NCBI GenBank assembly: GCA_905234715.1 | Contig: CAJOJI010000003.1 | Coordinates: forward strand, 1 to 52,930 | DNA: 52,930 nucleotides | Source: an uncultured Saccharofermentans sp. | Lineage (GTDB): Bacteria > Bacillota > Clostridia > Saccharofermentanales > Saccharofermentanaceae | Reading direction: 5' to 3' | In this document: positions 6,661 through 52,930 of the stretch, one piece after another | How the letters are laid out: each line of letters opens with the position of its first letter | Numbering within the stretch: position 1 is the stretch's first letter | Translations under genes and position numbers: made by a program | The notes under the pieces: model-generated | Databases searched by the model: none | What the model was told of the DNA's origin: nothing | Seen by the model: only the letters and a program-made list of their open reading frames with translations

Positions 6661-6730
6661 AATCGAGTAGGGGAAATTTAATTCCCCTCTCACACCACCG
6701 TACGTGCCGTTCGACATACGGCGGTTCAAC
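6661..6730 (-). mobile_element. Group II intron 3'-end remnant (domain V/VI-like)
   Basis: Minus strand TTGAACCGCCGTATGTCGAACGGCACGTACGGTGGTGTGAGAGGGGAATTAAATTTCCCCTACTCGATT, matching the characteristic bacterial group II intron DV-DVI layout. Confidence 0.75.
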
Positions 6731-7301: not shown

Positions 7302-9323
7302 TTAAGCCTCGTCTGTTGACTCAGGTGCTTCCTCAGCAGCCTCTTCAGCAGGAGCTTCCTCTACCTCAGGATCGATAGGGTTAACTTCCTTGATAGAGAT
7401 GGAGATTCTTCTCTCCTCAGGCTCGATCTTGATAACCTTAGCCTGAACAACCTGACCTACGGAAAGAACATCCTCAGGCTTCTCAAGTCTTCTGGAAGAG
7501 ATCTGAGATACGTGGCAGAGTGCGTCGAGATCGGGCTCAAGCTGAACGAAAGCGCCGAACTTTGTGAGACGAACTACTGTACCCTGAACGATGCAGCCTA
7601 CAGGCATTCTCTCTTCGATGTTGTAGTAAGGATCGTCCTCAAGCTTCTTATAGCCCAAAGAGATCTTCTTTGTTTCCTTATCGAAAGACTTAACGTAAAC
7701 GTCTACTTCCTCGCCAACCTTAAGAACGTCAGCAGGCTTAGCGTTGCGGCTCCATGAGAGCTCGGAAACGTGAACAAGTCCGTCAACACCGCCGATATCG
7801 ATGAATGCACCGAAATCTACGAGGCTTCTTACAACACCTGTATAGTGCTTGCCTTCCTCGATGTTGTCCCAGATCTCAGCAGACTTCTTACGGCGCTCTT
7901 CGGAAGCGATGATTCTGTGGCTTCCGGAAATTCTGAGACGGCCCTTCTCAGTATCGAACTTTGTAACAACGATCTCGAGTACCTGGCCAACATAAGACTC
8001 AAGGTCCTTAACCTCGCCTGTCTTGATCTGTGTTCTGTGGATATAGATATCAACGCCCTTGTAAGAACCGATAACACCGTCCTTAACTGTGCGTGTGATC
8101 TTAACTTCGATAGGAGTCTTGTTCTTGAAAGCTTCCTCGATCTCCGCTCTGCCCTTCTCGGACTCTACATCGTTCTTGGAAAGGATGATTTCCTTACCCT
8201 GATCGGAGTTCTTGATGCTTCTGACCTTAACGGTAACTTCTGTGTGATCGGCAATTGCCTTTTCAAGATCGAAGTCAGGATCCGAATCAAACTCCTTACG
8301 TGAAATTCTACCTTCGGACTTGTCGTGTACGTCTACATAAACATAGTCGTCGTCTGCAGATGTGATCGTGCCCTTAACAACAGCACCTCTTCTAACCTGC
8401 GCAATTAAATCGACAGCATTGGCAAACTCTGTGTCAAAGCCCTGATTTGTGATCTTCTCTTCTTCGTTCATTTGTTGAACAACCTCCAAAATAATAGCTT
8501 CCGGTGTAGATGCACCCGCTGTGATCCCGACCTTATCCGTGCGGAGGATCTTCCCTTCAGAGATGAGACTCCGTACTTCTGTGCCTGAGTTCACAAGGAA
8601 TGTTCTTGCACAACGACCTTTGCAGATGTCCAAAAGCTTAGTGGTGTTCGAACTATGAGCAGAACCGATGACTATCATCGAATCTGATATCTCAGAGAGC
8701 GAAGCGGCTTCCTTTTGCCTACTTTCAGTCGTAATACATATTGTATCAAAAACATTATATTTTTCAATTTTATTTTTAACTAATTGACAGATTTTTTTAA
8801 ATGCGGCGCTTGAGAACGTCGTTTGGGATATCAATATTGCGCTTTCAAGCGGAAATTCGAGGGTCTCAAGATCCTCAGGAGCCTTGATAACAGCGCATTT
8901 TACGCCTGTTCCCTCTGCTTCGCCCAAGATGCCTGTAACTTCAGGATGACCCTTTGTACCGGTAATGATTATGTTCATTCCCTTAAGGGCATTCTCCCTT
9001 ACGATCTTATGGATCTTGGAAACAAAGGGGCAAGTCATGTCCCTGATCTCGCAGTTTTTAGACTTTAAGATCTCTATCTCATCGGGAGTAACTCCGTGTG
9101 CCCTGACGATAACAATGGAACCTTCCGGGCAGTCCTCAGCCTTTTCGCAGATTTCGAATCCGCCTTCGAGAAGCTTATCTACTACATATCTGTTATGAAC
9201 TATCTCGCCTAACATGACCAGCTTTCTGCCGTCGGAACGCTCAGCGACAGCATTTTCAGCTGCCGTTACCGCATTCTTTACACCGAAGCAGAAACCGGAT
9301 GATTTGGCGATGGTTATATTCAT
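7302..9323 (-). CDS. Bifunctional IspH (HMBPP reductase) / ribosomal protein S1-domain fusion
   Basis: N-terminus MNITIAKSSGFCFGVKNAV (IspH FeS Cys) followed by multiple S1 repeats (VVRSLVDFGAFIDIGGVDGLVHVSELSW). Confidence 0.95.
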   Translation of the reverse strand: MNITIAKSSGFCFGVKNAVTAAENAVAERSDGRKLVMLGEIVHNRYVVDKLLEGGFEICEKAEDCPEGSIVIVRAHGVTPDEIEILKSKNCEIRDMTCPFVSKIHKIVRENALKGMNIIITGTKGHPEVTGILGEAEGTGVKCAVIKAPEDLETLEFPLESAILISQTTFSSAAFKKICQLVKNKIEKYNVFDTICITTESRQKEAASLSEISDSMIVIGSAHSSNTTKLLDICKGRCARTFLVNSGTEVRSLISEGKILRTDKVGITAGASTPEAIILEVVQQMNEEEKITNQGFDTEFANAVDLIAQVRRGAVVKGTITSADDDYVYVDVHDKSEGRISRKEFDSDPDFDLEKAIADHTEVTVKVRSIKNSDQGKEIILSKNDVESEKGRAEIEEAFKNKTPIEVKITRTVKDGVIGSYKGVDIYIHRTQIKTGEVKDLESYVGQVLEIVVTKFDTEKGRLRISGSHRIIASEERRKKSAEIWDNIEEGKHYTGVVRSLVDFGAFIDIGGVDGLVHVSELSWSRNAKPADVLKVGEEVDVYVKSFDKETKKISLGYKKLEDDPYYNIEERMPVGCIVQGTVVRLTKFGAFVQLEPDLDALCHVSQISSRRLEKPEDVLSVGQVVQAKVIKIEPEERRISISIKEVNPIDPEVEEAPAEEAAEEAPESTDEA

Positions 9324-9997
9324 TACTTATCTTCTTCGTCGAGATGGCTGATAAGGAAAGCTCTTGTTCCTTCGATATCGTACTTGCCTGTATCGATAAC
9401 GATTGCTTCAGGAACCTGAACGAGCGGAGATGCTGCTCTTGTGGAGTCCTGCTCATCTCTGTACTTGATGTCTCTTAAAACTTCTTCATATGTCTGTGAG
9501 TGATCGCCTGCAGCTTCAAGCTCTGCAAGTCTTCTCTCTGCTCTTACTTCGGGAGCACACAATACGAAGAACTTATACTTGGCATCGGGAAGAACGACAG
9601 ATGCGATATCTCTTCCGTCAAGCACGAATGTCTGATTCTTTGCGATCTCTCTTTGCAGTGAGACCATTGCAGTTCTAACAAAAGGAAGTGCGGAAATATC
9701 AGATGCTGCGATAGATGTCTGGGGTGTTCTGAGTTCGCCCGTTACATCCTCACCGTCAAGGATCATGTGCTGAACGCCGTCAACGAATTCAACTTCGATC
9801 TTAACTTCATCCATCATCTTCTTAACTGCATCAGCATCCTTGGGATTAATGCCCTTCTTGATGGATGCTACGGCACATGTTCTGTACATTGCGCCTGTAT
9901 CGAGATACATGATGCCCAGTTCTTTGGCAACACCTTTAGCGAGTGTGCTCTTGCCTGATCCTGAGGGTCCGTCGATAGCGATCTGAAAAATGCCCAT
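9323..9997 (-). CDS. cmk: (d)CMP kinase
   Basis: IAIDGPSGSGKSTLAKGVAKELGIMYLDTGAMYR, FVLDGRDIASVVLP. Confidence 0.96.
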   Translation of the reverse strand: MGIFQIAIDGPSGSGKSTLAKGVAKELGIMYLDTGAMYRTCAVASIKKGINPKDADAVKKMMDEVKIEVEFVDGVQHMILDGEDVTGELRTPQTSIAASDISALPFVRTAMVSLQREIAKNQTFVLDGRDIASVVLPDAKYKFFVLCAPEVRAERRLAELEAAGDHSQTYEEVLRDIKYRDEQDSTRAASPLVQVPEAIVIDTGKYDIEGTRAFLISHLDEEDK

Positions 9998-10009
9998 AAT
10001 ATTACTCCT

Positions 10010-10897
10010 TTATAAAATATCTCCGTCTTCTGTATTCCTGTCTCTTCCCGTCTCATATACACGGTACTGGGACCATAATGTTTCAAGTGATTCAAGTGAA
10101 GATTGAATATGCTCTTTTCTGTGCATTCCGAGTGAAACGAGCAATGCGTTGATAAGTGAGAGCGGTGCTGTCAGCGAGTCAACGAATGATGCCATTGAAG
10201 ACTTCGCGAAAAGCTTGATGTCGGCATATTCTGTCATTGCGGTATCGTCCTTATCGGTGATTGCAATGATTGTAGCGCCCTTGTCTTTTGCATATCCCAT
10301 TGAGTTGATCGTTCTTGCAGAATATCTCGGGAATGAAATGCCGATCATGACATCGCCTTTTCCGATAGGCATGATCTGCTCGAAAAGCTCATTGGTGCAT
10401 GTGCTTCTTACGAGAACCACATCATCAAAAAGAAGAGTCATATAGAAATGCATAAATTCTGATAAAGGAGCAGATGCCCTGATGCCCATGATGTATATCT
10501 TTCTGGCACCGAGAATGGCATTTACGGCCTTATCGAATTCTTTCTCGTCAATTGAATTAAGTGATTCCCTGAGATTTGAAATATCCTGTGCGACTACTGC
10601 TCTCAAAGCTTCGCTGTCGCTGTCGAATTTCTCTGCAAGGCCGAGTCTCTGAACCGAAGTAAGCTTTGACTTAAGGTCTTCCTGAAGGGCCTTTTGGAAT
10701 TCGGGATAACCTTCAAAACCGAGCTCGGTCGTAAATCTTACTACCGTTGACTCTGATACACCTACTTCCTCGCCGAGTTTTGCGGCGGTCATGTAAGCGG
10801 CTTTGTCATAAGACTGCAGGATGAAGTTCGCAATGGCCTTATGGCCTTTGCTCATGTTGGAGACTGATGTCTCGATCAGCTCAAGCGTCCCCGTCAT
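10010..10897 (-). CDS. MurR/RpiR family transcriptional regulator
   Basis: HTH_6 (GEEVGVSESTVVRFTTELGFEGYPEFQKAL) plus SIS domain; start probably MTGTLELIE. Confidence 0.88.
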   Translation of the reverse strand: MTGTLELIETSVSNMSKGHKAIANFILQSYDKAAYMTAAKLGEEVGVSESTVVRFTTELGFEGYPEFQKALQEDLKSKLTSVQRLGLAEKFDSDSEALRAVVAQDISNLRESLNSIDEKEFDKAVNAILGARKIYIMGIRASAPLSEFMHFYMTLLFDDVVLVRSTCTNELFEQIMPIGKGDVMIGISFPRYSARTINSMGYAKDKGATIIAITDKDDTAMTEYADIKLFAKSSMASFVDSLTAPLSLINALLVSLGMHRKEHIQSSLESLETLWSQYRVYETGRDRNTEDGDIL

Positions 10898-11555
10898 CTG
10901 ATTCACCTTCTTCGTCGTCATCTTCCTTCTTGGGATTCATGAGGCTGTCAATGGATATCTGCTTATCTTCACCGCCTGCAGCTTCCTTAAGAGAATCTTC
11001 CATATCTCTGATCGTCTGATAGCTCATAAGTTCAAGCGGCGGCAGGTCTCTTACTGATTCAATACCGAATTCAGTAAGGAACTTCTTGGAGGTCTTGAAA
11101 AGCGAAGGTCTTCCGGGCGCATCAAGATTGCCCGCTTCTTCTATCCAGCCTCTGTCTAAAAGTCTGGAAATAATGGAATCTGAAGAAACACCTCTGACGA
11201 GTTCTACCTGAGCTCTCGTGCAGGGCTGGTTATATGCGATAACGGCAAGTGTTTCATATGAAGCCTGTGAAAGCGGAGGTGTCTGTCTGGGACCGAACAT
11301 TCTGTCCAGTATCTTCTTCTGTGAAGGTCTGGTCATCATTGCATAAGAATCTTCTGTCCTTCTTATCTCAAGACCGCTCCAGGGATTTGATGCATATCTT
11401 TCCGTAAGGGACTTTAATGCTTCCAATACGGCATTCTTAGAACAGTTCAGGATATCAGCAAGCTTGTCGACAGAGACGGGATCTCCTGAAATAAACAATA
11501 TCGATTCGATCGCAGCCGGCAATTCCTGCGCAGTTACTTTAAAATCATCTTCCAT
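10881..11555 (-). CDS. scpB: Segregation and condensation protein B
   Basis: AIESILFISGDPVSVDKLADILN, LAVIAYNQPCTRAQVELVRGVSSDSIISRLLDRGWIEEAG. Confidence 0.94.
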   Translation of the reverse strand: MEDDFKVTAQELPAAIESILFISGDPVSVDKLADILNCSKNAVLEALKSLTERYASNPWSGLEIRRTEDSYAMMTRPSQKKILDRMFGPRQTPPLSQASYETLAVIAYNQPCTRAQVELVRGVSSDSIISRLLDRGWIEEAGNLDAPGRPSLFKTSKKFLTEFGIESVRDLPPLELMSYQTIRDMEDSLKEAAGGEDKQISIDSLMNPKKEDDDEEGESDDGDA

Positions 11556-11556
11556 A

Positions 11557-12315
11557 TCAGACCTTCTTCTCCTCTATCGATATCTCACCGAAGTTTCTTT
11601 CCTGTTCAACATTTATCTTATTATCTCTGACAAGTTCGAGCACAGCCAGGAAACTTACTACCTTATCCATTTTCTCTGCTTTCTTACCGAACAGGCTGCT
11701 GAACAGTATCTTGCCCTTGCCGGTAATGCTCCTCCAGATGGACTTGATCCTTTCTTTTACGGACATCTTGTCTTTTCTTAAGATATGCTTGATCTTAGCA
11801 GTAATATCCGTGAAACGGCTGTCATTACGTTCGTGTATCGTTGCTACCGCTTCATTGAATTCCTCAATCGAGAAAGCCTGTTCGGCAGGAGCAATGGTAA
11901 TGCCTAAAGACTTGGCCGTGGAAGCATAACGGAATCTTGCGCCGTCAAACTTATCTCTTCTCTCCTTCAGGTCGGAAGCGAAAACACGGCATCTCTTATA
12001 TCTCATAAGTGAGATGACAAGTTCTTCTCTGGGGTCTGCTGCATCTTCGCCGGAACCCAATGCTGCCTGCATGCCGGGAAGCATCATGCGCGACTTGATG
12101 GAAACAAGCGTTGCGCCCATAACGAGGAAATCTGAAGCGAGCTCCATGTCGAACTCTTTCATGGACTCGATATAGTCCATGTACTGAGCCGTAATCGTGC
12201 TTATCGGGATATCGTAAATGTCGACGTCGTTCTTTTCGATGAGATGCAAGAGCAGGTCCAAAGGGCCTTCGAATTGTCTTAATCTGATCTCCGGCTTTAC
12301 CGCTTGCTCAAGCAT
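11557..12315 (-). CDS. scpA: Segregation and condensation protein A
   Basis: IRLRQFEGPLDLLLHLIEKNDVDIYDIPISTITAQYMDYI. Confidence 0.95.
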   Translation of the reverse strand: MLEQAVKPEIRLRQFEGPLDLLLHLIEKNDVDIYDIPISTITAQYMDYIESMKEFDMELASDFLVMGATLVSIKSRMMLPGMQAALGSGEDAADPREELVISLMRYKRCRVFASDLKERRDKFDGARFRYASTAKSLGITIAPAEQAFSIEEFNEAVATIHERNDSRFTDITAKIKHILRKDKMSVKERIKSIWRSITGKGKILFSSLFGKKAEKMDKVVSFLAVLELVRDNKINVEQERNFGEISIEEKKV

Positions 12316-42016: not shown

Positions 42017-43045
42017 ATGAAGACTTTTAGGGTTATGCCTAAAGTCTTGATCGCAGCTTTGATCCTCGTAATAGCCGGTTGCAATAATCAGAGTGTCACA
42101 GAAATCCAGGAAAACGGCTTCGAGATTACAGAGTCATCGATTGAGACAACACTAGGCGAATACAACGTTGACAAGACAAAAGAAGCTAATGTGGCAAACA
42201 CTATTCCAAAAAACAATACACTTGGAACTAATGACATAGCCGCAAATCCTACCATCTCAACTGATGACTCTGCGCCTGTCCCGAGTGTTGCAGAAAAAGA
42301 CGTTGGTACAACACCATACAAAGATGATTCAAATAGCGGTTCAGATCATGTTGGATCACAAACGACAGCCAGCCCCACTTCAAAGCCAACAATGACAGGT
42401 GATACGGTCAATCCGACCAGTACGCCTAAACCAATAACATCAAACTCTCCTACCCCGACATTGAAACCAACGTCGACTCCTAAACCGACTTCTAATCCGA
42501 AAGCTACAAGTACGCCGACGCCAAAGCCGACTGCAACATCAACACCCAAACCTGCTGCAACAAACACCCCGAAACCGACGGCAACTCCTACGCCTAGAGC
42601 TACGGCTACACCTAAGCCGACTGCTTCTCCGACACCAAGGCCTACGAATACGCCTACACCCAAACCGACGGCGACACCTACTCCGGAACCGATCGTCACG
42701 CCGACGCCAGAACCTACGGCTACACCTACGCCGGAGCCAACTGCGACTCCGACACCTGTGCCTGACCCTGATCCTGTAGCTGCGATCGTTGAAGTCAATT
42801 ACACGGTCAGCGGTTATGACGATGACGGCAACGGAGACTTCGTTAAAGTGACCTTTACCAGAGAATACGTTGTTCAGCCGCTTTCAGACACGGAATATCA
42901 TTCATACAATCCCTACGATTATGTTCTCTACGACTATCAGGAGGATATTGACGGTCTGTATGCGGAGTTCTACAGCGTATATCCTATGGGTGTCGTTTCA
43001 GGGTACTCTTCTTCACCGCACATCATCGGCTTTGTCGATGACTGA
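42017..43045 (+). CDS. Lipoprotein with long Thr/Pro stalk and small C-terminal domain
   Basis: Lipobox ALILVIAGCNN; (TPTPKPTAT)-type stretch; C-terminus AAIVEVNYTVSGYDDDGNGDFVKVTFTREYVVQ...; RBS aggagg. Confidence 0.8.
   Translation: MKTFRVMPKVLIAALILVIAGCNNQSVTEIQENGFEITESSIETTLGEYNVDKTKEANVANTIPKNNTLGTNDIAANPTISTDDSAPVPSVAEKDVGTTPYKDDSNSGSDHVGSQTTASPTSKPTMTGDTVNPTSTPKPITSNSPTPTLKPTSTPKPTSNPKATSTPTPKPTATSTPKPAATNTPKPTATPTPRATATPKPTASPTPRPTNTPTPKPTATPTPEPIVTPTPEPTATPTPEPTATPTPVPDPDPVAAIVEVNYTVSGYDDDGNGDFVKVTFTREYVVQPLSDTEYHSYNPYDYVLYDYQEDIDGLYAEFYSVYPMGVVSGYSSSPHIIGFVDD
42414..42770 (+). repeat. Degenerate Thr-Pro-Lys/Glu codon repeat (stalk region of the lipoprotein)
   Basis: TPKPTATSTPKPAATNTPKPTATPTP...EPTATPTPEPTATPTP. 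Confidence 0.85.
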
Positions 43046-43106: not shown

Positions 43107-43135
43107 CCTCGCAATCTTTTGCGGGGTCTTTTTAT
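43107..43135 (+). terminator. Rho-independent terminator
   Basis: CCTCGCAA-TCTT-TTGCGGGG-TCTTTTTATT. Confidence 0.8.
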
Positions 43136-43161
43136 TTCCAGAAAACAAGGAGGAAATCAGA

Positions 43162-44391
43162 ATGAAGGATTCAACAAGAAAGATCATCCTTCTCGCTAAC
43201 AAGGCCCGCAGCGCCATTGTCGGGAACCGCATTGCAAGACGCACAGTTTCTGCATTCGTTGCACTCTCGTTAGTCATCTCTCCCCTTACGCCTGAGCTTG
43301 CAGTATATGCAGCTGAGAACGTAAACGTAGACGAGACTATCGAGGAACAAGCATCTGAACAGTCCGAACCTGATGAAACTGAGGCAATCATGCCTACAGA
43401 ATCACTGCTCCCGGACTTTTCAGACTATGCCGTAGACGAGCCTGTTATCGTGGAGAATGATGAAGACATCGATGTTACCGATCCTTCGGACAGCATCGAT
43501 TCAACCGCTCCCCCCACAGAGCAGACAGAAGAGACTTCCGAGACAACTGCTGAAACATCAGAATCAGCAGAAACAACGGAACCGTCATCTTCTGAAACGA
43601 CTGAGGTTATAGAGACAACACAGCCTGATCCGACCGAAACAACAGTGGTTGAACAGCCTGTTGAGGAAACAAAGAGCAACATAATCAAGGCAGCTTCTGC
43701 TGACGAGTATTATGACCTCGTTTCCAAGCTCCCCGAAGGCTATCAGAGACTGATCGTCGACACCAATGCTGATCTCTCTTCCCTCGTTTGCGCTGACGGT
43801 GTCTACTACGACGGCACTTATATCCTCGTCTTCGATGACTCAGACACAACAGCTTCTGCAATCGTTTACTGCGACAAGATGGGATATGAGTATGCAATAG
43901 ACGGCACTCTCGGTGTTTGCGGTAATTTCGGTCCCGTGATCTCTTACGGCGCCGTTAATCCCTCAGCAAAGACAAAGGTTGCCGTTATCGACACGGGTTC
44001 CAACCTCGCAAATGAGAGATATTCCGTTATCGGAGACGATGTTGCGGACCACAACGGTCACGGTACAGCCATGTGCGACTTCATCTTAAACGAGACAACA
44101 GATGCTTATATCATCTCCATCAAGGCAATCGGTGATGACGGCAGAGGCAACATGACTGATGTTTATGCCGCCGTTCAGCTCGCAGAAGATCTCGGTGTCA
44201 GTTATATCCTCATGGCGATCTCTATCAGAGACAACGGTCAGTACGATGCATTCAGATCCCTGATCGAAAGCACAAAGGCAAAAGTGTTCGCATCCGCAGG
44301 TAATAACGGAGCAGATGCTTCCGGTTATCTCCCCGCAGGTGTCAAGAACGTAATGACCATTGGTGCAGTAAACAGCGAGCACCTCAGTTGA
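43162..44391 (+). CDS. Secreted S8 subtilase-like protein, N-terminal fragment of a frame-broken giant surface protein
   Basis: Signal peptide FVALSLVISPLTPELAVYA; Asp motif KVAVIDTGSN; His motif DHNGHGTAMCDFI; Asn motif ASAGNNGADASGYLPAG; TGA at 44389-44391. Confidence 0.75.
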   Translation: MKDSTRKIILLANKARSAIVGNRIARRTVSAFVALSLVISPLTPELAVYAAENVNVDETIEEQASEQSEPDETEAIMPTESLLPDFSDYAVDEPVIVENDEDIDVTDPSDSIDSTAPPTEQTEETSETTAETSESAETTEPSSSETTEVIETTQPDPTETTVVEQPVEETKSNIIKAASADEYYDLVSKLPEGYQRLIVDTNADLSSLVCADGVYYDGTYILVFDDSDTTASAIVYCDKMGYEYAIDGTLGVCGNFGPVISYGAVNPSAKTKVAVIDTGSNLANERYSVIGDDVADHNGHGTAMCDFILNETTDAYIISIKAIGDDGRGNMTDVYAAVQLAEDLGVSYILMAISIRDNGQYDAFRSLIESTKAKVFASAGNNGADASGYLPAGVKNVMTIGAVNSEHLS

Positions 44392-44401
44392 TTACTATGT
44401 C

Positions 44402-47400
44402 ATGAGAGCGAACTCTACTTCAGAAGCGGCAGCAACAGCTTTGGGCTGGTATATCAGAGATGCCGCAAACATGAAGGATATCCTTGGCTCTTACAGAGCA
44501 TATAAGCCTTCAGGTGACGGATACTGCTATTACGTCGGCTCATCCGAATACTTCGTTACGGACTCACCCAGTTCAAGCGGTTCCGGTTATGAAGTCTATT
44601 CAACAGTTGATGGTTCAACCAGCACATCTGACGACGACAACTGCATCGTTTACTACGACGACTATATCTCAGGCTGGGATAACCCTAACCAGAGAAGAAT
44701 GTATGTCTACTACGAAGGTTCAAGCAATTACGATACCTGGGATAAGTCCGTGTATTGTATTGAGTGGGACCAGACAAGCCCTGCAAGCGGAAAGGCATAC
44801 TACAACTGCCACCCGAGCGTATTGAACCAGACAGTCAAAGTCGGAAGCTATACCGTTACAAGAGAGCAGTACTTACAGGCTGTCTTCGCTTTCGGTCCCG
44901 GCGGCCGTTTATCAAGTTATGGAAAGTCCTGGCTTGATTCGCACGACAAGTCCGGTGCTCTCAAGGATCACGGCACATACGGTCGATATATCCTGACTCA
45001 TATCCTGGCTGATATGGCATTTGACGGTGAGACAACGACATCCTGGGGTTCTACCGCATGGATGAACCTTGTTGCAGACTATGCAAAGTATATCGTCAGT
45101 GTACGTATGGGCGGAACAACATTGTATTCTTCCGGTCATCCGTTACAGCTTACAGGCTGGTGGGTACAGGTATGTGAAGCCGGTCAGTATCCAGACAGTT
45201 TCCAGAAGATGGCGTTCGGTAACGTAACACTCACACCGATCAATACGCCTACTCCGACAAGCAGTCCCACACCGACTCCCACGAACAGCCCTACCCCTAC
45301 ACCTACAAACAGTCCGACACCTACACCAACCAATAGTCCTACGCCGACACCTACGCCTAAGGCATATGTTGCTGCAAGCAAATCTCTCGGCACGAACTAT
45401 CAGCTCCTTAGGAACAGGACATACACGTTTGTACTCCGTGACAATACGGCAAATTCGCAGGTCGCAACGGGCACAGCAAAGTTTGATGCTAATGCAACGA
45501 ACAACACGACAGTATCAGTAACATGGTCGAACATCGCTAGCGGATATGCTTCCGCATCGAACAACAGAGTACAGGTCGTTCCCGGACACACATACGAGCT
45601 TCGTGAGACAGTTACAAGTGTTGAAGGCCGTGCTCTTGATACACCTTCAGGCTGGTCAAAGAGCAGCGACGGCACATACTTCTACAAGACATTCACGGTA
45701 AGTGCCGACAACACTACGACAATTACTCTGACAAACGACACTACAGTACCGCTCACTCTTACAAAAGCGTCAACAGACACTTCAAAGACGAACGGAAACA
45801 GTGCTTACAGTCTTGCAGGAGCTAAGTATGTGATTGCAAAAGACACCGCGTTCTCAGCTTCCAGCACAGTCGGAACTTTCACCATGAAGGCGGATGGTTC
45901 TGCTGACAGGAATATCAACGTGGTATGCGGCACAACCTACTACCTCAAGGAGACAGAACCTGCTTCAGGTTATGATCTCGATACGGCTGTTTACAAGATC
46001 GTGATCGCCGCAAACGGTGCCGCAACGGTATCTGTACAGTCAGGCACCGCACCGAAAGCACCGACATGTACTAACGGCAACCCCATCGTTATCGGAATCT
46101 TTGACAGACCGAAGGATACGCAGATCAGTCTTACCAAGGCTTCTGCCAACCCGGGTGTAACGAATAACAACAGCTGCTACTCCCTGAACGGTACAACCTA
46201 TAAGCTCTATCCGTCAAAGGCTGACGCCAATGCGAACATCAACGGTTTAGCAACGTTCACGGTCAATGCAAACGGAGTTACGGCTACAACACACACGGTT
46301 ACTTATGGCTCGACCTACTATCTTAAGGAGACCGCAGCCGGCAAGGGATATGACCTCGACATGAATATCTATACGGTTACGGTAAGTGCTTCCGGCGTTG
46401 TTTCCGTTGACAGAAACGTAAAAACAACAAAGTCCGGTGATGTTTACTATATGAATATGACGGATATCCCGGGCCGTGACCCTCTTACCATTTCCTTAAG
46501 GAAGGTCGATAAGGTAGGCAACGTTGTTCATAACGCATCTTTCTCCGGAGCCAAGTTCAGGATCTCCTACTACGCTCAGGACCTTGGTGCAAGCGGCAAC
46601 AGCAATGCTGAAGCAACTGTAGTTTATGAGTACACATTGAACGGAAGTTCCGCAACGATTAAGCTTTCCGATCTGCAGACACTTACACCTGTCGGCGGAA
46701 ACGATAAGAACTACCTCAAGAATCTCTCAGGTACACAGTATCCGTATGGCACGATCCGCATTCAGGAGATTGAAGCTCCTGCCGGATATATGCTGAACGA
46801 TCAGATCGTCAGGATCCGTCTCTTGGATGACGGAACTACTCCTCGTTATGTTGAGAACAACTCATCTTACGGCACAGGAAATAAGATGTACTGGGAACAC
46901 CTCGCTGACGGAACAATGCAGCTCACCGAGCTTCCCGAAGTCGGATACTACTCTCTTACAAAGTCTCTTAAAGACAAGACTATCCGCTCTTCCGTCGCAG
47001 GTTTTAAGTTTGAACTCTACAACACGAGTTCTCAGGCAACTCCCGTACAGATCGCGACTGGTATATCACAGTCAGACGGAAAAGTCCTCTGGACATATAC
47101 GGTACCGAACTACTACTCCAACACCGATACGTCAAAACTCTTAACGGGAACAACGACATATAACCTCGAACTTCCCGCAACAGAGAAAAACGCTTCAGGC
47201 ACTGAGGTAAACATTCAGTATCAGGTACGTGAGATCAAGAGTTCCGTTGCCATCGCATACGGAGCATCCGGCATTCCTTATACTTACTCAACTCCTGCAG
47301 GCTGGAACAATGCAGCCGATTACTTCTACAAGGCAGTAACGGTCAACAGCAGCTCCACTGTTAAGCAGGACGGCGTAGTAAACAACTACGAGTACACAGG

Positions 47401-49906
47401 AATCAATGTCAACAAGGTCGTACCTTCAGGCAATCCTTTCGACATGACCAAGGTCACCTTCAAACTCTACAATACCGACAGCAACAAACTCATTGCCAAC
47501 GGTTCTGTAGACAGCAAAGGCAACGTTACCTGGAACAGAGTCGACAAGACGGGTTATGGCATCTCTCCCGCCTCAAGCGTAAATGTCATCAACTTTCTCC
47601 CTCTCGGCCACTACCGCATTGAAGAGACCTGGGATAAGGAATATGTTGACGGTGTCCTCATAGAGGAACACAACAACAGCGGCTGGACAAAGACAGAAAC
47701 GGCTACTGCTTACACCTACTCCAAGACTCTCGATCTTACGGCGAAATCCAACAACGGAAAGATCACTGCTTTGGCTGTAGAAAACGAAAAGGACGTCCAG
47801 AAGTTCAACCTCACCAAGCAGGTAACTGTCGCAGGTGATGCTTCCACCATTACCGCACAGCTTTACAAAGTAAACGGCGGCACTGAGACACTCATAGCTA
47901 CGGGTACTGCAAAGACAAACGGTATTGGAACTTACGGTTTCACATGGACCTATTCCGGTAAACACACGACAGAAGATGGCCTTGATACTCTCATACTTCC
48001 TGTCGGAAAGTACAGAGTAGTTGAGCTCTGCCCTGTTACTTACTACAAGAACACACAGGTCCCTTACACTTACAAGATCCCTGAGGGTTTTGCTTCCAGA
48101 ACGGTCAACGGCAAGCTCCAGTTCTACAAGAACTTTGAGCTTAAGGCAGGAAGCTATGCAACTCTCAAGTCGACAGTTACCAATGTAAGGACTGAAGGCT
48201 CATTCAAGATCGTCAAGATGGAGCGTTCCGGTGAAGACACAAACAAGACTTTCACATTCGAAGTCTACTATCGCGGGAACGGTTCTTCCGCTTCCGATAC
48301 GGCAACACTCCTTGAGAAAGTCACTGTCACAACGGTAAACGGTAAAGGCTCAGCATCTCTTTCCAAGCTCCCTGAGGGCTGGTACGAGATCCGCGAAGTA
48401 AATGCCGGTTCCAAGTGGACAACACACTGGCTTAACGGCTCAACCAACGAAAACAAGGTATTCCGCATCTCAGGCAGCACCAATGCAGGCGAAATAGTCT
48501 GCTACAACGATGTTGCACCCGAGATCAGGACAACATTGGTTGACAGAGGAACCGGAGATCACATCTTCTCCTGCTCTGCTTCAGCAATACTCGAGGATAC
48601 GGTCTCCTATAAGAACCTCATGCCGGGACATTATGTAATGAGCGGCGTGCTTATGGATAAGAATACCGGCAAGGCACTTCTCGATAAGAACGGAAAGCAG
48701 ATCACGGGCAGCGCTGAGTTTGACGTTAAGACAGTACTCGACGAATACGGTGAGGCCGTTCCGCAGTCAGGCTCAGTCAAGGTAACATACACTCTTGATA
48801 CAACAGTGATCAGGGATGTTACGGTCGTTGCTTTCGAGGAACTCCATGCAAAGACTGCCACAGGCATTATCGTTGCAAAGCATGCGGATATCAACGATGT
48901 TAACCAGACGGTTTATATCCCCGATATCCATACAACTCTCGTTGATTCCAAGACAGCCGATCACGTATCGTCCTGCTCCAAGACAGCAACACTGGTTGAT
49001 ACCGTCACTTATTCGAACCTTATTCTGAATAAGGAATACACGGTAACAGGCACGCTGTACAACAAGGCAACAGGCAAGTCTTTAGGCATTACCGCCACCA
49101 AGACATTCAAGCCTTCAGCTATAATCGGCACCGTAAACATTGAGTTCACGGTCGATACAACAAAGCTTGCAGGCATCACGGTCGTTGCTTTCGAATCTGT
49201 TAAGTACAAGAATGTTGAGATCGCAATTCATGCTGATATCAACGATGTTGATCAGACAGTCGAGATCCCTGACATCCATACGACTCTTGTAGATTCAAAG
49301 ACAAACAATCACGTTTCAGCTTGTGATAAGACAGCAAAGCTCGTCGATACAGTAACTTATTCGAACCTTATTCCCGGAAAGGAATATACGTTAACCGGTA
49401 CGCTTTATAACAAGGCTACAGGCAAGTCTTTAGGCATCTCTGCTTCAAAGACATTCAAGCCTACAAAGGCGAACGGAACTGAAACGATTGAGTTCATTGT
49501 TGATACGACAGTCTTAGCAGGTGTGACAATCGTTGCTTTCGAGACAGTGAAGTATGCAGGAAAGGATATTGCAATCCATGCCGACATCAACGATGTTGAC
49601 CAGACTATATATGTTCCCGAGATCCATACAACACTCGTCGACTCGAAGACATCTGAGCATATCTCGGCATGCTCCGCAACAACTAAGCTTGTCGATACGG
49701 TTTCCTTCAAGAACCTTATTCCCGGAAAGGAATACACAGTTACCGGAACACTGATGAACAAGGCAGACGGAAAGTCCTTGGACATTACCGCCACAAAGAC
49801 ATTCAAGCCTTCGGCAGCAAACGGAACCGTAGACATCGAGTTGAGGTCGGAACACTTTACAGGGCTGAAGCGACACTCTACAAGAATGACGGCACACAGA
49901 TCATGA
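44402..49906 (+). CDS. Giant surface adhesin-like protein, continuation in another frame
   Basis: Begins with a Ser-motif-like STSEAAATALGWY; possible thioester-type region (SVYCIEWD...); Thr/Pro stalk; Cna-B/SpaA-like domains (YYLKETEPASGYDLD, IQEIEAPAGYML); VaFE repeats (VVAFE...HADINDVDQT). Confidence 0.8.
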   Translation: MRANSTSEAAATALGWYIRDAANMKDILGSYRAYKPSGDGYCYYVGSSEYFVTDSPSSSGSGYEVYSTVDGSTSTSDDDNCIVYYDDYISGWDNPNQRRMYVYYEGSSNYDTWDKSVYCIEWDQTSPASGKAYYNCHPSVLNQTVKVGSYTVTREQYLQAVFAFGPGGRLSSYGKSWLDSHDKSGALKDHGTYGRYILTHILADMAFDGETTTSWGSTAWMNLVADYAKYIVSVRMGGTTLYSSGHPLQLTGWWVQVCEAGQYPDSFQKMAFGNVTLTPINTPTPTSSPTPTPTNSPTPTPTNSPTPTPTNSPTPTPTPKAYVAASKSLGTNYQLLRNRTYTFVLRDNTANSQVATGTAKFDANATNNTTVSVTWSNIASGYASASNNRVQVVPGHTYELRETVTSVEGRALDTPSGWSKSSDGTYFYKTFTVSADNTTTITLTNDTTVPLTLTKASTDTSKTNGNSAYSLAGAKYVIAKDTAFSASSTVGTFTMKADGSADRNINVVCGTTYYLKETEPASGYDLDTAVYKIVIAANGAATVSVQSGTAPKAPTCTNGNPIVIGIFDRPKDTQISLTKASANPGVTNNNSCYSLNGTTYKLYPSKADANANINGLATFTVNANGVTATTHTVTYGSTYYLKETAAGKGYDLDMNIYTVTVSASGVVSVDRNVKTTKSGDVYYMNMTDIPGRDPLTISLRKVDKVGNVVHNASFSGAKFRISYYAQDLGASGNSNAEATVVYEYTLNGSSATIKLSDLQTLTPVGGNDKNYLKNLSGTQYPYGTIRIQEIEAPAGYMLNDQIVRIRLLDDGTTPRYVENNSSYGTGNKMYWEHLADGTMQLTELPEVGYYSLTKSLKDKTIRSSVAGFKFELYNTSSQATPVQIATGISQSDGKVLWTYTVPNYYSNTDTSKLLTGTTTYNLELPATEKNASGTEVNIQYQVREIKSSVAIAYGASGIPYTYSTPAGWNNAADYFYKAVTVNSSSTVKQDGVVNNYEYTGINVNKVVPSGNPFDMTKVTFKLYNTDSNKLIANGSVDSKGNVTWNRVDKTGYGISPASSVNVINFLPLGHYRIEETWDKEYVDGVLIEEHNNSGWTKTETATAYTYSKTLDLTAKSNNGKITALAVENEKDVQKFNLTKQVTVAGDASTITAQLYKVNGGTETLIATGTAKTNGIGTYGFTWTYSGKHTTEDGLDTLILPVGKYRVVELCPVTYYKNTQVPYTYKIPEGFASRTVNGKLQFYKNFELKAGSYATLKSTVTNVRTEGSFKIVKMERSGEDTNKTFTFEVYYRGNGSSASDTATLLEKVTVTTVNGKGSASLSKLPEGWYEIREVNAGSKWTTHWLNGSTNENKVFRISGSTNAGEIVCYNDVAPEIRTTLVDRGTGDHIFSCSASAILEDTVSYKNLMPGHYVMSGVLMDKNTGKALLDKNGKQITGSAEFDVKTVLDEYGEAVPQSGSVKVTYTLDTTVIRDVTVVAFEELHAKTATGIIVAKHADINDVNQTVYIPDIHTTLVDSKTADHVSSCSKTATLVDTVTYSNLILNKEYTVTGTLYNKATGKSLGITATKTFKPSAIIGTVNIEFTVDTTKLAGITVVAFESVKYKNVEIAIHADINDVDQTVEIPDIHTTLVDSKTNNHVSACDKTAKLVDTVTYSNLIPGKEYTLTGTLYNKATGKSLGISASKTFKPTKANGTETIEFIVDTTVLAGVTIVAFETVKYAGKDIAIHADINDVDQTIYVPEIHTTLVDSKTSEHISACSATTKLVDTVSFKNLIPGKEYTVTGTLMNKADGKSLDITATKTFKPSAANGTVDIELRSEHFTGLKRHSTRMTAHRS
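45230..45360 (+). repeat. Thr/Pro/Ser stalk repeat (SPTPTPTN units)
   Basis: INTPTPTSSPTPTPTNSPTPTPTNSPTPTPTNSPTPTPTPK. Confidence 0.9.
48524..49848 (+). repeat. Tandem VaFE (T-Q ester bond) domain repeats, 116-134 aa period
   Basis: Starts at 48524, 48926, 49274, 49622 (spacing 402, 348, 348 nt): I(R/H)TTLVD...DTV(T/S)(Y/F)xNL...VVAFE...HADINDVxQT. Confidence 0.85.
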
Positions 49907-50220
49907 TTAACGGAAGACCTCTTAAGAGCATTGTCCAATTCACTCCTACGACAAAGGACGGAACAGTTAAAGTAAGCATAACCTTCTCAAGCGAAGGATT
50001 TGCCGAAGGAGAATCCGCAGTCGTATTTGAAAAAATATTCGATGTGGCAACAGAAACGGAAAAGACAGCCGGAACGCAGACAACTGATCTTCTCGTAGCA
50101 AGACATGAAAATCTCAACGATAAGAATCAGACAGTTACGGTTCATTATCACCCGCCGATTCCGCAAACAGGAGAAGGAACTTCCGCAAGCCCTCTCTCCT
50201 TCTCAGACTTAAAAACATGA
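49840..50220 (+). pseudogene. Out-of-frame C-terminal fragment of the surface protein (last partial VaFE repeat plus IPQTGE motif)
   Basis: Frame 1: VEVGTLYRAEATLYKNDGTQIMINGRPLKSIVQFTPTTKDGTVKVSITF...AVVFEKIFD...ARHENLNDKNQTVTVHYHPPIPQTGEGTSASPLSFSDLKT*. Confidence 0.75.
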
Positions 50221-51863
50221 GACTGAAAAGGAAAGGGTTGCCCGAGATAGAGCTCCCTGCTGAGAAAGTGCCTCAGGGCATTGTTGTCGGGTGTTCCGGC
50301 AACAATGAAGCAATCGTGGATACGGGAGATGTCCACGCGCTTATGCTCGGAGCTGCCGGTGTCGGTAAGACGGCATTCTGGTTATATCCGTGTATTGAAT
50401 ATGCCTTAGCATCCGGTATGAGCTTTCTGTCGACCGATACCAAGGGCGATATTATGAGAAACTACGGGAACATCTGTAAAGAATACGGTTATAACGTTGC
50501 TGTCATTGATCTTCGTAATCCGACCAGATCTAACGGAAACAACCTGTTGCACCTCGTAAACAAGTATATGGATCTTGCTTTGGCAAATCCTGAGAACGTT
50601 GCTTACAGGGCTAAGGCAGAAAAGTATGCAAAGATCATATCCAAAACGATAATTCTCTCTGGAATGGAAGCAACCGCTTTCGGACAGAATGCTTTCTTCT
50701 ACGATGCTGCTGAAGGTCTTCTTACAGCAACAATACTGCTTATAGCCGAGTTTGCTCAGCCTGAACATCGACACATTGTGTCGGTATTCAAGGTAATTCA
50801 GGAACTCTTATCGCCTACCGGAATCAAAGGAAAGAATCAGTTTCAGCTTCTTATGGACGACCTTCCGGACGATCATAAAGCGAAATGGTTTGCCGGTGCG
50901 GCATTGAACTCCCCAGAACAGTCAATGTCGTCAGTTATGAGCACGGCGTTATCAAGACTCAACACATTCCTTGACTCCGAGCTCGAACAGCTCCTCTGCT
51001 TCGATACAGAACTTGATGCCGAGAAGTTCTGCAAAGAAAAGAGTGCGCTTTTCATTATCATGCCGGAAGAAAACCCGAACACGTTCTTCCTTATCTCCCT
51101 TATTATTCAACAGCTTTACCGCGAAATCTTGTCTGTGGCCGATGAGAACGGCGGTAAGCTTGAGAATCGTTGCGTATTCTTCTGCGATGAGTTCGGAACT
51201 TTGCCGAAGATCGACTCCGCAGAGATGATGTTTTCCGCTTCGCGTTCCAGAAGACTGCAAATAGTACCGATAATCCAGTCTTTTGCCCAGCTCGAAAAGA
51301 ACTACGGTAAGGAAGGTGCGGAGATAATCATTGATAATACGCAGCTCACTATCTCCGGAGGATTTGCTCCGAACTCTACATCAGCTGATGTCATTTCAAA
51401 AGCATTGGGCACAAGAACAGTATTGTCCGGTTCGGTAAGCAGATCCAAGGAGAACCCGTCGCAATCGCTGCAGATGATCGAACGGCCGCTTATGACTGCG
51501 GATGAGCTTAGAAATCTTCCCAAAGGCATGTTTATCGTCATGAAAACAGGCTTCCACCCTATGAAGGTTCATATGAAGCTGTTTTTCAAATGGGGAATTA
51601 CTTTCGATGAAAACAATCCGTATGTCGTAAGTGAACATGCAAGCCGCAAAGTCGAATACTCTTGTCGAGATGATATCAAGCGCGCAATCAACGACAAGTA
51701 CCACAAAAATATCGATGCAACAGAGACTGAGAATTCCAAGAACAATGGCGGCCAGAAACATGATCCCAAGAATCCGCCAGTAGAGGTCTTCACTGGCCCG
51801 CCGGAAAACAGAGAACGATATGCCAAGTATATGACCATGAAAGAGGGCAAGAACAATGATTAA
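50217..51863 (+). CDS. TraG/VirD4-family coupling ATPase (conjugative transfer)
   Basis: Walker A MLGAAGVGKTAFW, FLSTDTKGDIMRNYGNICKEYGYNVAVIDLRNPTRSNGNNLLHLV, Walker B RCVFFCDEFGTLPKIDSAEMMFSASRSRRLQIVPIIQSFAQLEKNYG. Confidence 0.88.
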   Translation: MRLKRKGLPEIELPAEKVPQGIVVGCSGNNEAIVDTGDVHALMLGAAGVGKTAFWLYPCIEYALASGMSFLSTDTKGDIMRNYGNICKEYGYNVAVIDLRNPTRSNGNNLLHLVNKYMDLALANPENVAYRAKAEKYAKIISKTIILSGMEATAFGQNAFFYDAAEGLLTATILLIAEFAQPEHRHIVSVFKVIQELLSPTGIKGKNQFQLLMDDLPDDHKAKWFAGAALNSPEQSMSSVMSTALSRLNTFLDSELEQLLCFDTELDAEKFCKEKSALFIIMPEENPNTFFLISLIIQQLYREILSVADENGGKLENRCVFFCDEFGTLPKIDSAEMMFSASRSRRLQIVPIIQSFAQLEKNYGKEGAEIIIDNTQLTISGGFAPNSTSADVISKALGTRTVLSGSVSRSKENPSQSLQMIERPLMTADELRNLPKGMFIVMKTGFHPMKVHMKLFFKWGITFDENNPYVVSEHASRKVEYSCRDDIKRAINDKYHKNIDATETENSKNNGGQKHDPKNPPVEVFTGPPENRERYAKYMTMKEGKNND

Positions 51864-52128
51864 CATCTCATTTCTCTACTCAATTGAGGGCATAAACAAC
51901 AGGGCTATCGTTGTTTACCTGTACCTGAATGACCGGGCAAACAAGGAAGGCGTATGCTGGCCAGGCATCAACACGATTGCGACAGACCTTCATCGCTCCA
52001 GGTCAACCATAAAGCGAGCGATAAACGATTTAAGAGCCTTAAAGCTCATTCAAACAGAACAGCGGTTTCGCCCTAATGGTGCGAAATCGAGCCTTGAATA
52101 CAGATTATCAAGGCCAAAACACTATTAA
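51856..52128 (+). CDS. Helix-turn-helix domain protein
   Basis: NRAIVVYLYLNDRANKEGVCWPGINTIATDLHRSRSTIKRAINDLRALKLIQTEQRFRPNGAKSSLEYRL. Confidence 0.8.
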   Translation: MINISFLYSIEGINNRAIVVYLYLNDRANKEGVCWPGINTIATDLHRSRSTIKRAINDLRALKLIQTEQRFRPNGAKSSLEYRLSRPKHY

Positions 52129-52144
52129 TTTGGGAGGAAATAAT

Positions 52145-52930
52145 ATGAATTACAAAGAATTTAGACAGAAAGTCTTCGATAACATTAAAGATCACCTTTC
52201 CGAAGAGTATCAGGATTATGATATGAGATTTCAGGACATCAGAAAGGGCGCCGGGAACCAATACGAGGCTCTTATGATCGGTCCTAAGGACAGTAAGATG
52301 AGTGTCACACCAGCTCTCAACCTTACCAATGCGTTTAAGGAATACGAAAATGGCATGCCGTTTGATGAAATCTTGGACAAGCTTGCAGATATCCGCATGC
52401 ACGCTGCACTTCCCAACTTCAACAAGGAAGACATATTTGATTACGACAAGATTAAGGATAGGATCATCCCCAGACTCATTAACACAGCTGCAAACGAGGA
52501 ATATCTTGCAGACAAACCTCATAAGGACATGGAGGACCTCTCCATTGTCTATGCAGTTAGGGTATCCGAGGACGAACAGGGCTTCGCAGATGCCGTAATT
52601 ACAAAGGATCTTGCTAATATGTGGGGTGTTTCAGCTCAGGAACTCCACGATAAGGCAATGGATAACATCGCGGAAAGACCGCCTGTCTTCCAGAATATCG
52701 AATCCGTCCTTTTCGGCAAAAAGGAAAATCTCGAAATCGAGGATGTTGAGCCTGAAGAGTACGATGTTCCTTATTTCATCTTGACCAATCAGCAGAAAAC
52801 CAAAGGTGCTGTTATGGCTGTAAACCCTAAAACGATGGATAGAATTACCGCAAAGCTCGGCGAAGTCTATGTTATCCCCTCTTCCGTTGACGAGACTTTG
52901 ATTGTGCCGGAGCCCAATGAGATATTGGAG
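52145..52930 (+). CDS. DUF5688-like protein (runs off the right edge)
   Basis: MNYKEFRQKVFDNIKDHL...VTPALNLTNAFKEYENGMPFDEILDKLADIRMHA...LSIVYAVRVSEDEQGFADAVITKDLANMWGVSAQELHDKAMDN; open to the window end. Confidence 0.75.
   Translation, partial: MNYKEFRQKVFDNIKDHLSEEYQDYDMRFQDIRKGAGNQYEALMIGPKDSKMSVTPALNLTNAFKEYENGMPFDEILDKLADIRMHAALPNFNKEDIFDYDKIKDRIIPRLINTAANEEYLADKPHKDMEDLSIVYAVRVSEDEQGFADAVITKDLANMWGVSAQELHDKAMDNIAERPPVFQNIESVLFGKKENLEIEDVEPEEYDVPYFILTNQQKTKGAVMAVNPKTMDRITAKLGEVYVIPSSVDETLIVPEPNEILE

What the first reader, a model, noticed from the sequence alone, without database searches (positions are those of the whole stretch)
43162..50220. Giant modular surface protein (S8 subtilase-like + possible TED + Thr/Pro stalk + Cna-B + VaFE) embedded in a conjugation cluster
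Across two frame breaks, this ~7 kb locus encodes one signal-peptide-bearing polypeptide. It combines a subtilase-like catalytic region, a Cys-containing possible thioester-type domain, a Thr/Pro stalk, several isopeptide-type Cna-B-like domains and at least four ester-bond VaFE repeats, ending in IPQTGE. A protease-like head on a covalently cross-linked stalk, placed directly before a VirD4-type coupling ATPase, suggests a mating or attachment adhesin carried by an ICE, analogous in role to aggregation-substance-type proteins of conjugative elements. The sequence supports the domain order; the mating function is inference.
Basis: partly seen in the sequence, partly recalled or inferred. Interest (0 to 1): 0.78.

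Follow-up and report, generated by a model that had tools for sequence, protein, structure and literature searches.

The report
Broken protease-headed adhesin on ICE remnant
The window holds a damaged copy of a giant cell-surface protein that combines a subtilisin-type protease and a 'sticky' domain on a cross-linked stalk; intact relatives occur in rumen bacteria both on conjugative elements and at fixed chromosomal sites, so it is a real and apparently undescribed adhesin family, but not one used only for mating.

Summary
43162-50220 encodes, in pieces, a signal peptide, a subtilisin propeptide and S8 domain, a diverged thioester domain (TED), a Thr/Pro spacer, Cna-B domains, VaFE ester-bond domains and IPQTGE. 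Three points correct it. (1) The frame breaks are deletions relative to homologs: about 26-29 nt inside S8, part of VaFE4/VaFE5, and the C-terminal membrane helix. (2) At 50187 the adhesin is joined to a VirD4 gene lacking its first ~83 codons. Closest relatives carry about 10 kb there (sortase, TrbL, VirB4, MobL relaxase, primase), absent from this whole assembly. The window therefore holds an ICE remnant with a broken adhesin (or a misassembly), not a working conjugation cluster. (3) Intact homologs (about 1300-4600 aa) exist in about a third of one rumen genus (Saccharofermentans-like). The S8 head is constant (D/H/N/S 31/31; dN/dS 0.03-0.13). The next domain is swapped: TED or NlpC/P60. 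About 19 copies sit at a chromosomal rsgA-rpe-thiN-DUF5688 locus, 3 beside glycogen genes and 15 in mobile contexts. Best reading: a tethered protease-adhesin that ICEs also carry, probably to aid mating contact. It works like TIEpLS20 plus PrgA, but fused. New variant of a known kind; function is inferred.

The parts
43162..43314 (+). Sec signal peptide of the adhesin (MKDSTRK...AVYAA); RBS aggaggaaa just upstream, after a terminator-like hairpin near 43110-43140
   Evidence: sequence read directly; no signal-peptide program was run
43315..43680 (+). acidic Glu/Thr/Pro-rich spacer
   Evidence: sequence
43681..43923 (+). subtilisin-type propeptide (I9-like), conserved across the family
   Evidence: alignment; beta-alpha-beta-beta-alpha-beta order in the models, pLDDT about 70-80 there; named by inference
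43960..44391 (+). S8 subtilase domain, part 1: Asp 43990-43992, His 44059-44061, oxyanion Asn 44302-44304
   Evidence: PF00082 E=3.7e-8; family alignment A1; coordinates
44388..44402 (+). first break: about 26-29 nt missing relative to homologs (SNYG region) with frame shift
44399..44460 (+). S8 domain, part 2: catalytic Ser in NSTSEAA at 44420-44422
44609..45240 (+). diverged thioester domain: Cys 44756-44758, Gln 45203-45205, TH in place of TQ at 44999
   Evidence: homology 25-37% to homologs, some of which match TED_2; C402/Q535 invariant in A2
45245..45400 (+). Thr/Pro spacer
   Evidence: sequence
45420..48515 (+). stalk of Cna-B/SpaA-type domains (PF17802 above cut-off at 45776-46039, 46175-46411, 46733-46852, 48197-48409; further Ig-like units between by homology)
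48518..49615 (+). three complete VaFE/TQ ester-bond domains
49616..50142 (+). VaFE4 (first two thirds) joined out of frame to VaFE5 (last two thirds): second break near 49840-49846
50160..50220 (+). IPQTGEGTSAS sorting motif without membrane helix or charged tail; joined at 50187 to VirD4 sequence
50217..51863 (+). VirD4/TraG coupling ATPase lacking about its first 83 residues (641 aa in G027)
   Evidence: PF02534 E=3.3e-45, conju_CD1115, 98% identity to G027
51856..52128 (+). HTH_36 protein, same order in the related ICEs
52151..52918 (+). DUF5688 protein, cut by the contig end
40046..41938 (+). element-type genes upstream: orf135, AbrB-like, YodL/DUF3846, SpoVG; same order in G013
42017..43045 (+). 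lipoprotein with Thr/Pro stalk, also upstream of the adhesin in G013

Best explanation
This is a decayed copy, on an ICE remnant, of a family of sortase-anchored surface proteins in which a constant, prodomain-bearing subtilisin (S8) head is fused to an exchangeable second head (thioester domain or NlpC/P60) and displayed on a Cna-B/VaFE stalk. In intact members the protein is exported by Sec, the S8 domain frees itself from its propeptide, and a sortase (often encoded next door) anchors the C-terminus. The stalk stiffens by isopeptide and ester bonds and presents protease plus capture domain far from the cell. The S8 domain trims or unmasks surface proteins of the partner or of the same cell, while the TED bonds covalently to, or the NlpC/P60 domain docks on, the partner surface. 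At the chromosomal locus this serves general attachment or contact; on ICEs it most likely helps mating-pair contact. Shown: domain order, conserved catalytic residues, purifying selection, both genomic contexts, the lesions in the window. Inferred: proteolysis, covalent capture, target and mating role.
For: S8 domain in all 31 aligned members with invariant Asp, His, Asn, Ser. Profile hits subtilisin structures at about 1e-21, and Foldseek hits are subtilisins. A propeptide is conserved with it. dN/dS of the S8 domain is 0.03-0.13 in ten pairs from all contexts. TED Cys/Gln invariant in 12 of 12 and NlpC Cys/His invariant in 13 of 13; Pfam TED_2 and NLPC_P60 matches. VaFE, SpaA and a sorting signal with membrane helix in intact members. 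Sortase next to many copies. ICE context with relaxase, VirB4-like ATPase, TrbL, VirD4, ParB or integrase. Window lesions and the missing ~10 kb. Precedents: TIEpLS20 (PMC8092201), PrgA stalked protease (PMC10588982), peptidoglycan-hydrolase adhesins TraAd/TrsAd (PMC11067333).
Against: No activity, bond or phenotype was or could be tested. The S8 domain lacks the usual segment between APG and GTS and the Pro of GTSMAAP, so peptidase activity could be narrow or lost. TED_2 matches are weak and the window's TED is reached only by homology. The structure models are poor (mean pLDDT 59 and 61). Chromosomal copies outnumber mobile ones, so a mating role cannot be general. Assembly error rather than decay could explain the breaks.
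Confidence: 0.6

Rival explanations
1. Dedicated mating adhesin of ICEs: the protein exists to bring donor and recipient together, and chromosomal copies are domesticated remnants.
For: In G013/G027 the adhesin heads a block of sortase-TrbL-VirB4-relaxase-VirD4; TIEpLS20 precedent (PMC8092201).
Against: 19 copies at one conserved chromosomal locus, long-lived and under purifying selection, with no transfer genes nearby; 3 more beside glycogen genes. The window's S8 head groups with TED-type heads that are mostly chromosomal, not with the S8 of its closest ICE.
Confidence: 0.2
2. General adhesin of rumen bacteria (plant fibre, mucus, protozoa or other cells) picked up by ICEs as fitness cargo, with no part in conjugation.
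For: Chromosomal majority; hosts are mostly rumen or ruminant-gut bacteria; strong variation of the second head and stalk.
Against: Position within the transfer block, beside a sortase, in the best-preserved ICEs.
Confidence: 0.3
3. Surface-exclusion or contact-control protease: the stalked S8 head cleaves other adhesins (as proposed for PrgA on PrgB) and the second head only positions it.
For: S8 is the constant part while the second head is swapped; PrgA precedent of a stalked protease on a conjugative plasmid (PMC10588982).
Against: PrgA is not a subtilisin fusion of this kind to my knowledge; no target known; chromosomal copies without ICE.
Confidence: 0.15
4. The window's breaks are metagenome assembly artefacts and the strain has an intact adhesin and ICE.
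For: Fragmented assembly (174 contigs), repeat-rich gene, several S8 copies in the same genome, other copies broken too (C105, C119).
Against: Sortase-to-primase block has no strong match anywhere in the assembly; core genes scanned in the window give normal domain matches.
Confidence: 0.3

Closest known systems
TIEpLS20 (gene 34 of pLS20), class II TED adhesin needed for conjugation (PMC8092201)
   Same: Thioester-type head, Cna-type stalk, encoded with conjugation genes
   Different: No S8 protease, no VaFE, no sortase anchoring; the present family is also chromosomal and can carry NlpC/P60 instead of TED
TIE proteins BaTIE, SaTIE, EfmTIE86 (PMC6194298)
   Same: TED and isopeptide domains (ester domains too in SaTIE), sortase anchoring, Cys/Gln pair
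   Different: Here an S8 domain with propeptide precedes the TED; TQ motif reads TH or AH; TED strongly diverged
PrgA of pCF10 (PMC10588982)
   Same: Protease domain presented far from the wall on a stalk, on a conjugative element
   Different: Separate protein from the adhesin PrgB; here protease and capture domain are one chain with a Cna-B/VaFE stalk
TraAd/TrsAd peptidoglycan-hydrolase adhesins (PMC11067333)
   Same: Peptidoglycan-hydrolase-type domain used for cell contact, as in the NlpC/P60-headed members
   Different: No S8, no cross-linked stalk
Wall-anchored subtilases such as C5a peptidase or lactocepin (from memory)
   Same: S8 domain on a sortase-anchored protein
   Different: Full-size S8 domain and other accessory domains; no TED/NlpC second head or VaFE stalk
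PrgB / aggregation substance (PMC10588982)
   Same: Anchored adhesin on a conjugative element
   Different: Polymer adhesin domain absent here

Membership tests
Peptidase family S8 | Sequence match to the S8 profile | tested here: met
   31 of 31 members, best E=5.7e-19; window E=3.7e-8
Peptidase family S8 | Asp-His-Ser triad and oxyanion Asn | tested here: met
   D15, H38, N122, S171 invariant in 31 sequences; in the window all four codons present but split by the break
Peptidase family S8 | Canonical APG...GTSMAAP segment | tested here: not met
   Family goes directly from SNYG..VDYYV.A to STSEAAA
Peptidase family S8 | Proteolytic activity | not testable with these tools
   -
TIE (thioester-isopeptide-ester) proteins | TED with Cys in [YFL]C-hydrophobic-hydrophilic and Gln | tested here: inconclusive
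   Cys and Gln invariant in 12 homologs and present in the window; TED_2 above cut-off only for L062; TQXX-W motif not kept
TIE proteins | Cna-B and ester (VaFE/TQ) domains | tested here: met
Sortase-anchored surface proteins | LPxTG-like motif, membrane helix, charged tail | tested here: not met
   Window: IPQTGE only, helix lost at 50187; intact homologs have all three
Aggregation substance / PrgB | Polymer adhesin (GbpC-type) domain | tested here: not met
   Pfam scan of the window protein gives only S8, SpaA and TQ
ICE | Integrase, relaxase and T4SS genes in one element | tested here: not met
   Window: VirD4 only; the sortase-to-primase block is absent from the assembly. All seen in relative G027
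Conjugation function | Loss of transfer on deletion | not testable with these tools
   -

The most novel reading that the evidence does not exclude
A genus-wide class of two-warhead surface proteins: a compact tethered subtilisin fused to an interchangeable covalent (thioester) or wall-hydrolase (NlpC/P60) head, in which the protease acts on the partner surface, or on the adhesin itself, to license attachment; the same gene is used by chromosomes for contact and by ICEs for mating.
Probability: 0.3. Interest if true: 0.75.

Novelty: new variant of a known kind. Interest (0 to 1): 0.5.

Why it matters
Gram-positive conjugation lacks pili, and how donors hold recipients is poorly known. Here a protease, a function that pCF10 keeps in a separate stalked protein, is fused to a thioester or wall-hydrolase head, and ICEs share the module with chromosomes. 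That makes the question 'adhesin, protease or both?' directly testable by point mutation in one gene. No paper on such a fusion was found in the held library.

Tried and rejected
Programmed frameshift or simple sequencing slip at the two breaks: rejected, because homologs show missing sequence at each. Plasmid or phage origin: no plasmid match, and only generic subtilisins in phages. Strangely conserved basic tail in eight chromosomal copies: explained by a convergent aminotransferase gene overlapping the 3' end; no Rfam match there. Structure prediction of two head types gave weak models, usable only as support for a subtilisin fold. No paper mentions DUF5688. One literature search and one paper look-up failed on term syntax.

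Full report
What is in the window. Bases 1-39.6 kb are ordinary chromosome (arabinofuranosidase, ThiI, SHMT, tRNA synthetases, two tRNA-Pro). From 40046 on, genes of an element follow on the + strand: orf135, AbrB-like, YodL/DUF3846, SpoVG, a Thr/Pro lipoprotein, the adhesin in pieces (43162-50220), VirD4, HTH_36 and DUF5688 at the contig end. The window is a whole contig of a 2.78-Mb, 174-contig assembly.

The adhesin. Pfam and NCBIfam find S8, SpaA/Cna-B and VaFE with strong scores. The TED is not found by Pfam in the window. It rests on 25-37% identity to homologs, some of which match TED_2, and on the Cys and Gln that are invariant in the family. By the motifs in PMC6194298, the Cys sits in the expected [YFL]C context, while the TQXX-W motif is altered to TH or AH.

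The breaks. Homologs read GAV-DG-L-S-SNYG--VDYY between the oxyanion region and the catalytic Ser; the window lacks about nine residues there and changes frame. VaFE4 ends at profile position 82 and the next piece starts at 34 in another frame. After IPQTGEGTSAS the sequence becomes VirD4 at 50187. Relatives have a membrane helix after the same motif, and VirD4 of G027 has 641 residues against 548 here. In G027 the gap holds sortase, TrbL, VirB4-like ATPase, a 337-aa protein resembling NlpC-type wall hydrolases by sequence only (no Pfam match), MobL relaxase and primase. A search of the whole assembly with that 10-kb block finds only short or paralogous matches. So the element is a remnant, or the contig is misjoined; the data cannot decide.

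The family. A search with the S8 region finds matches in 31 of 115 genomes of the same family, all in one genus. With a profile it is 30 of 188 genomes in the order, 1 of 30 genera. Distant members occur in other Clostridia: L115, labelled Lachnospiraceae, 2600 aa with seven VaFE domains, and G434. Named records are rumen and gut MAGs labelled Saccharofermentans, Ruminococcaceae or Clostridiales, and two records not marked as MAGs, AB4001 and YRB3002. Many named loci are the same genomes as the unnamed ones and must not be counted twice. Intact proteins run from about 1390 to 4614 aa.

The head. All 31 aligned S8 domains keep Asp, His, Asn and Ser; 31 of 31 match PF00082, and the profile finds subtilisins in the PDB. 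The domain is compact: the segment that normally lies between APG and GTS is missing in the whole family. An I9-like propeptide is conserved with it. dN/dS is 0.03-0.13 in ten pairs. The second head is TED or NlpC/P60; on the S8 tree the head type changes at least twice, and the genomic context at least five times. The window's S8 groups with TED-type, mostly chromosomal copies, while its upstream genes and part of its stalk resemble the ICE of G013, which suggests module exchange.

Contexts. By gene families around 40 loci, 19 copies lie at rsgA-rpe-thiN-DUF5688, 3 beside glycogen genes and 15 with ParA/B, relaxase, VirD4 or related markers (one of them by its HTH and DUF5688 neighbours only). 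The rest are undetermined. DUF5688 occurs in only 1-5 copies per genome in most genomes, yet lies near the adhesin in both main contexts.

Mechanism. The most economical reading is a sortase-anchored protein that displays a self-processing protease and a capture or wall-binding head on a cross-linked stalk. On ICEs a mating role is supported by position and by three precedents: TIEpLS20, PrgA and TraAd/TrsAd. The chromosomal majority argues against a role in mating only. Every functional step is inferred.

Verdict. A real and apparently undescribed variant of TIE-type adhesins; the window itself holds a broken copy on an element remnant.

Noticed in passing
52151-52918; L041, L047, L060, L190: DUF5688, a low-copy family of unknown function (1-5 per genome in most genomes), lies near the S8 adhesin in both the chromosomal and the mobile context.
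   Followed up: partly
50217-52908 against G027:C14 (L190): VirD4 is 98% identical in protein and the region 92% in DNA to another genome of the genus: sign of recent ICE exchange.
   Followed up: partly
own genome C105, C119 (L042, L043): Two further S8-adhesin copies in the same assembly are also frame-broken; C77 is intact.
   Followed up: partly
L063 (G021:C43) 7670-12220: S8 adhesin ORF ends in an unrelated C-terminus instead of VaFE and an anchor, followed by a primase-like gene; possibly a similar internal deletion in another ICE.
   Followed up: no
L068 12813-12949 and equivalents in the chromosomal NlpC-type loci: 3' end of the adhesin overlaps a convergent aminotransferase gene by about 137 nt; the overlap looks conserved in the related loci inspected.
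   Followed up: partly
6662-6726 (-): Group II intron domain hit just above Rfam's threshold (41.7 against 40 bits), near tRNA-Pro genes.
   Followed up: no
42017-43045: Lipoprotein with a long Thr/Pro repeat stalk directly upstream, shared with the G013 ICE; possible companion surface protein.
   Followed up: no
L045, L049, L079: Adhesins of 3369-4614 aa with the same S8-type head, among the longest of the family.
   Followed up: no
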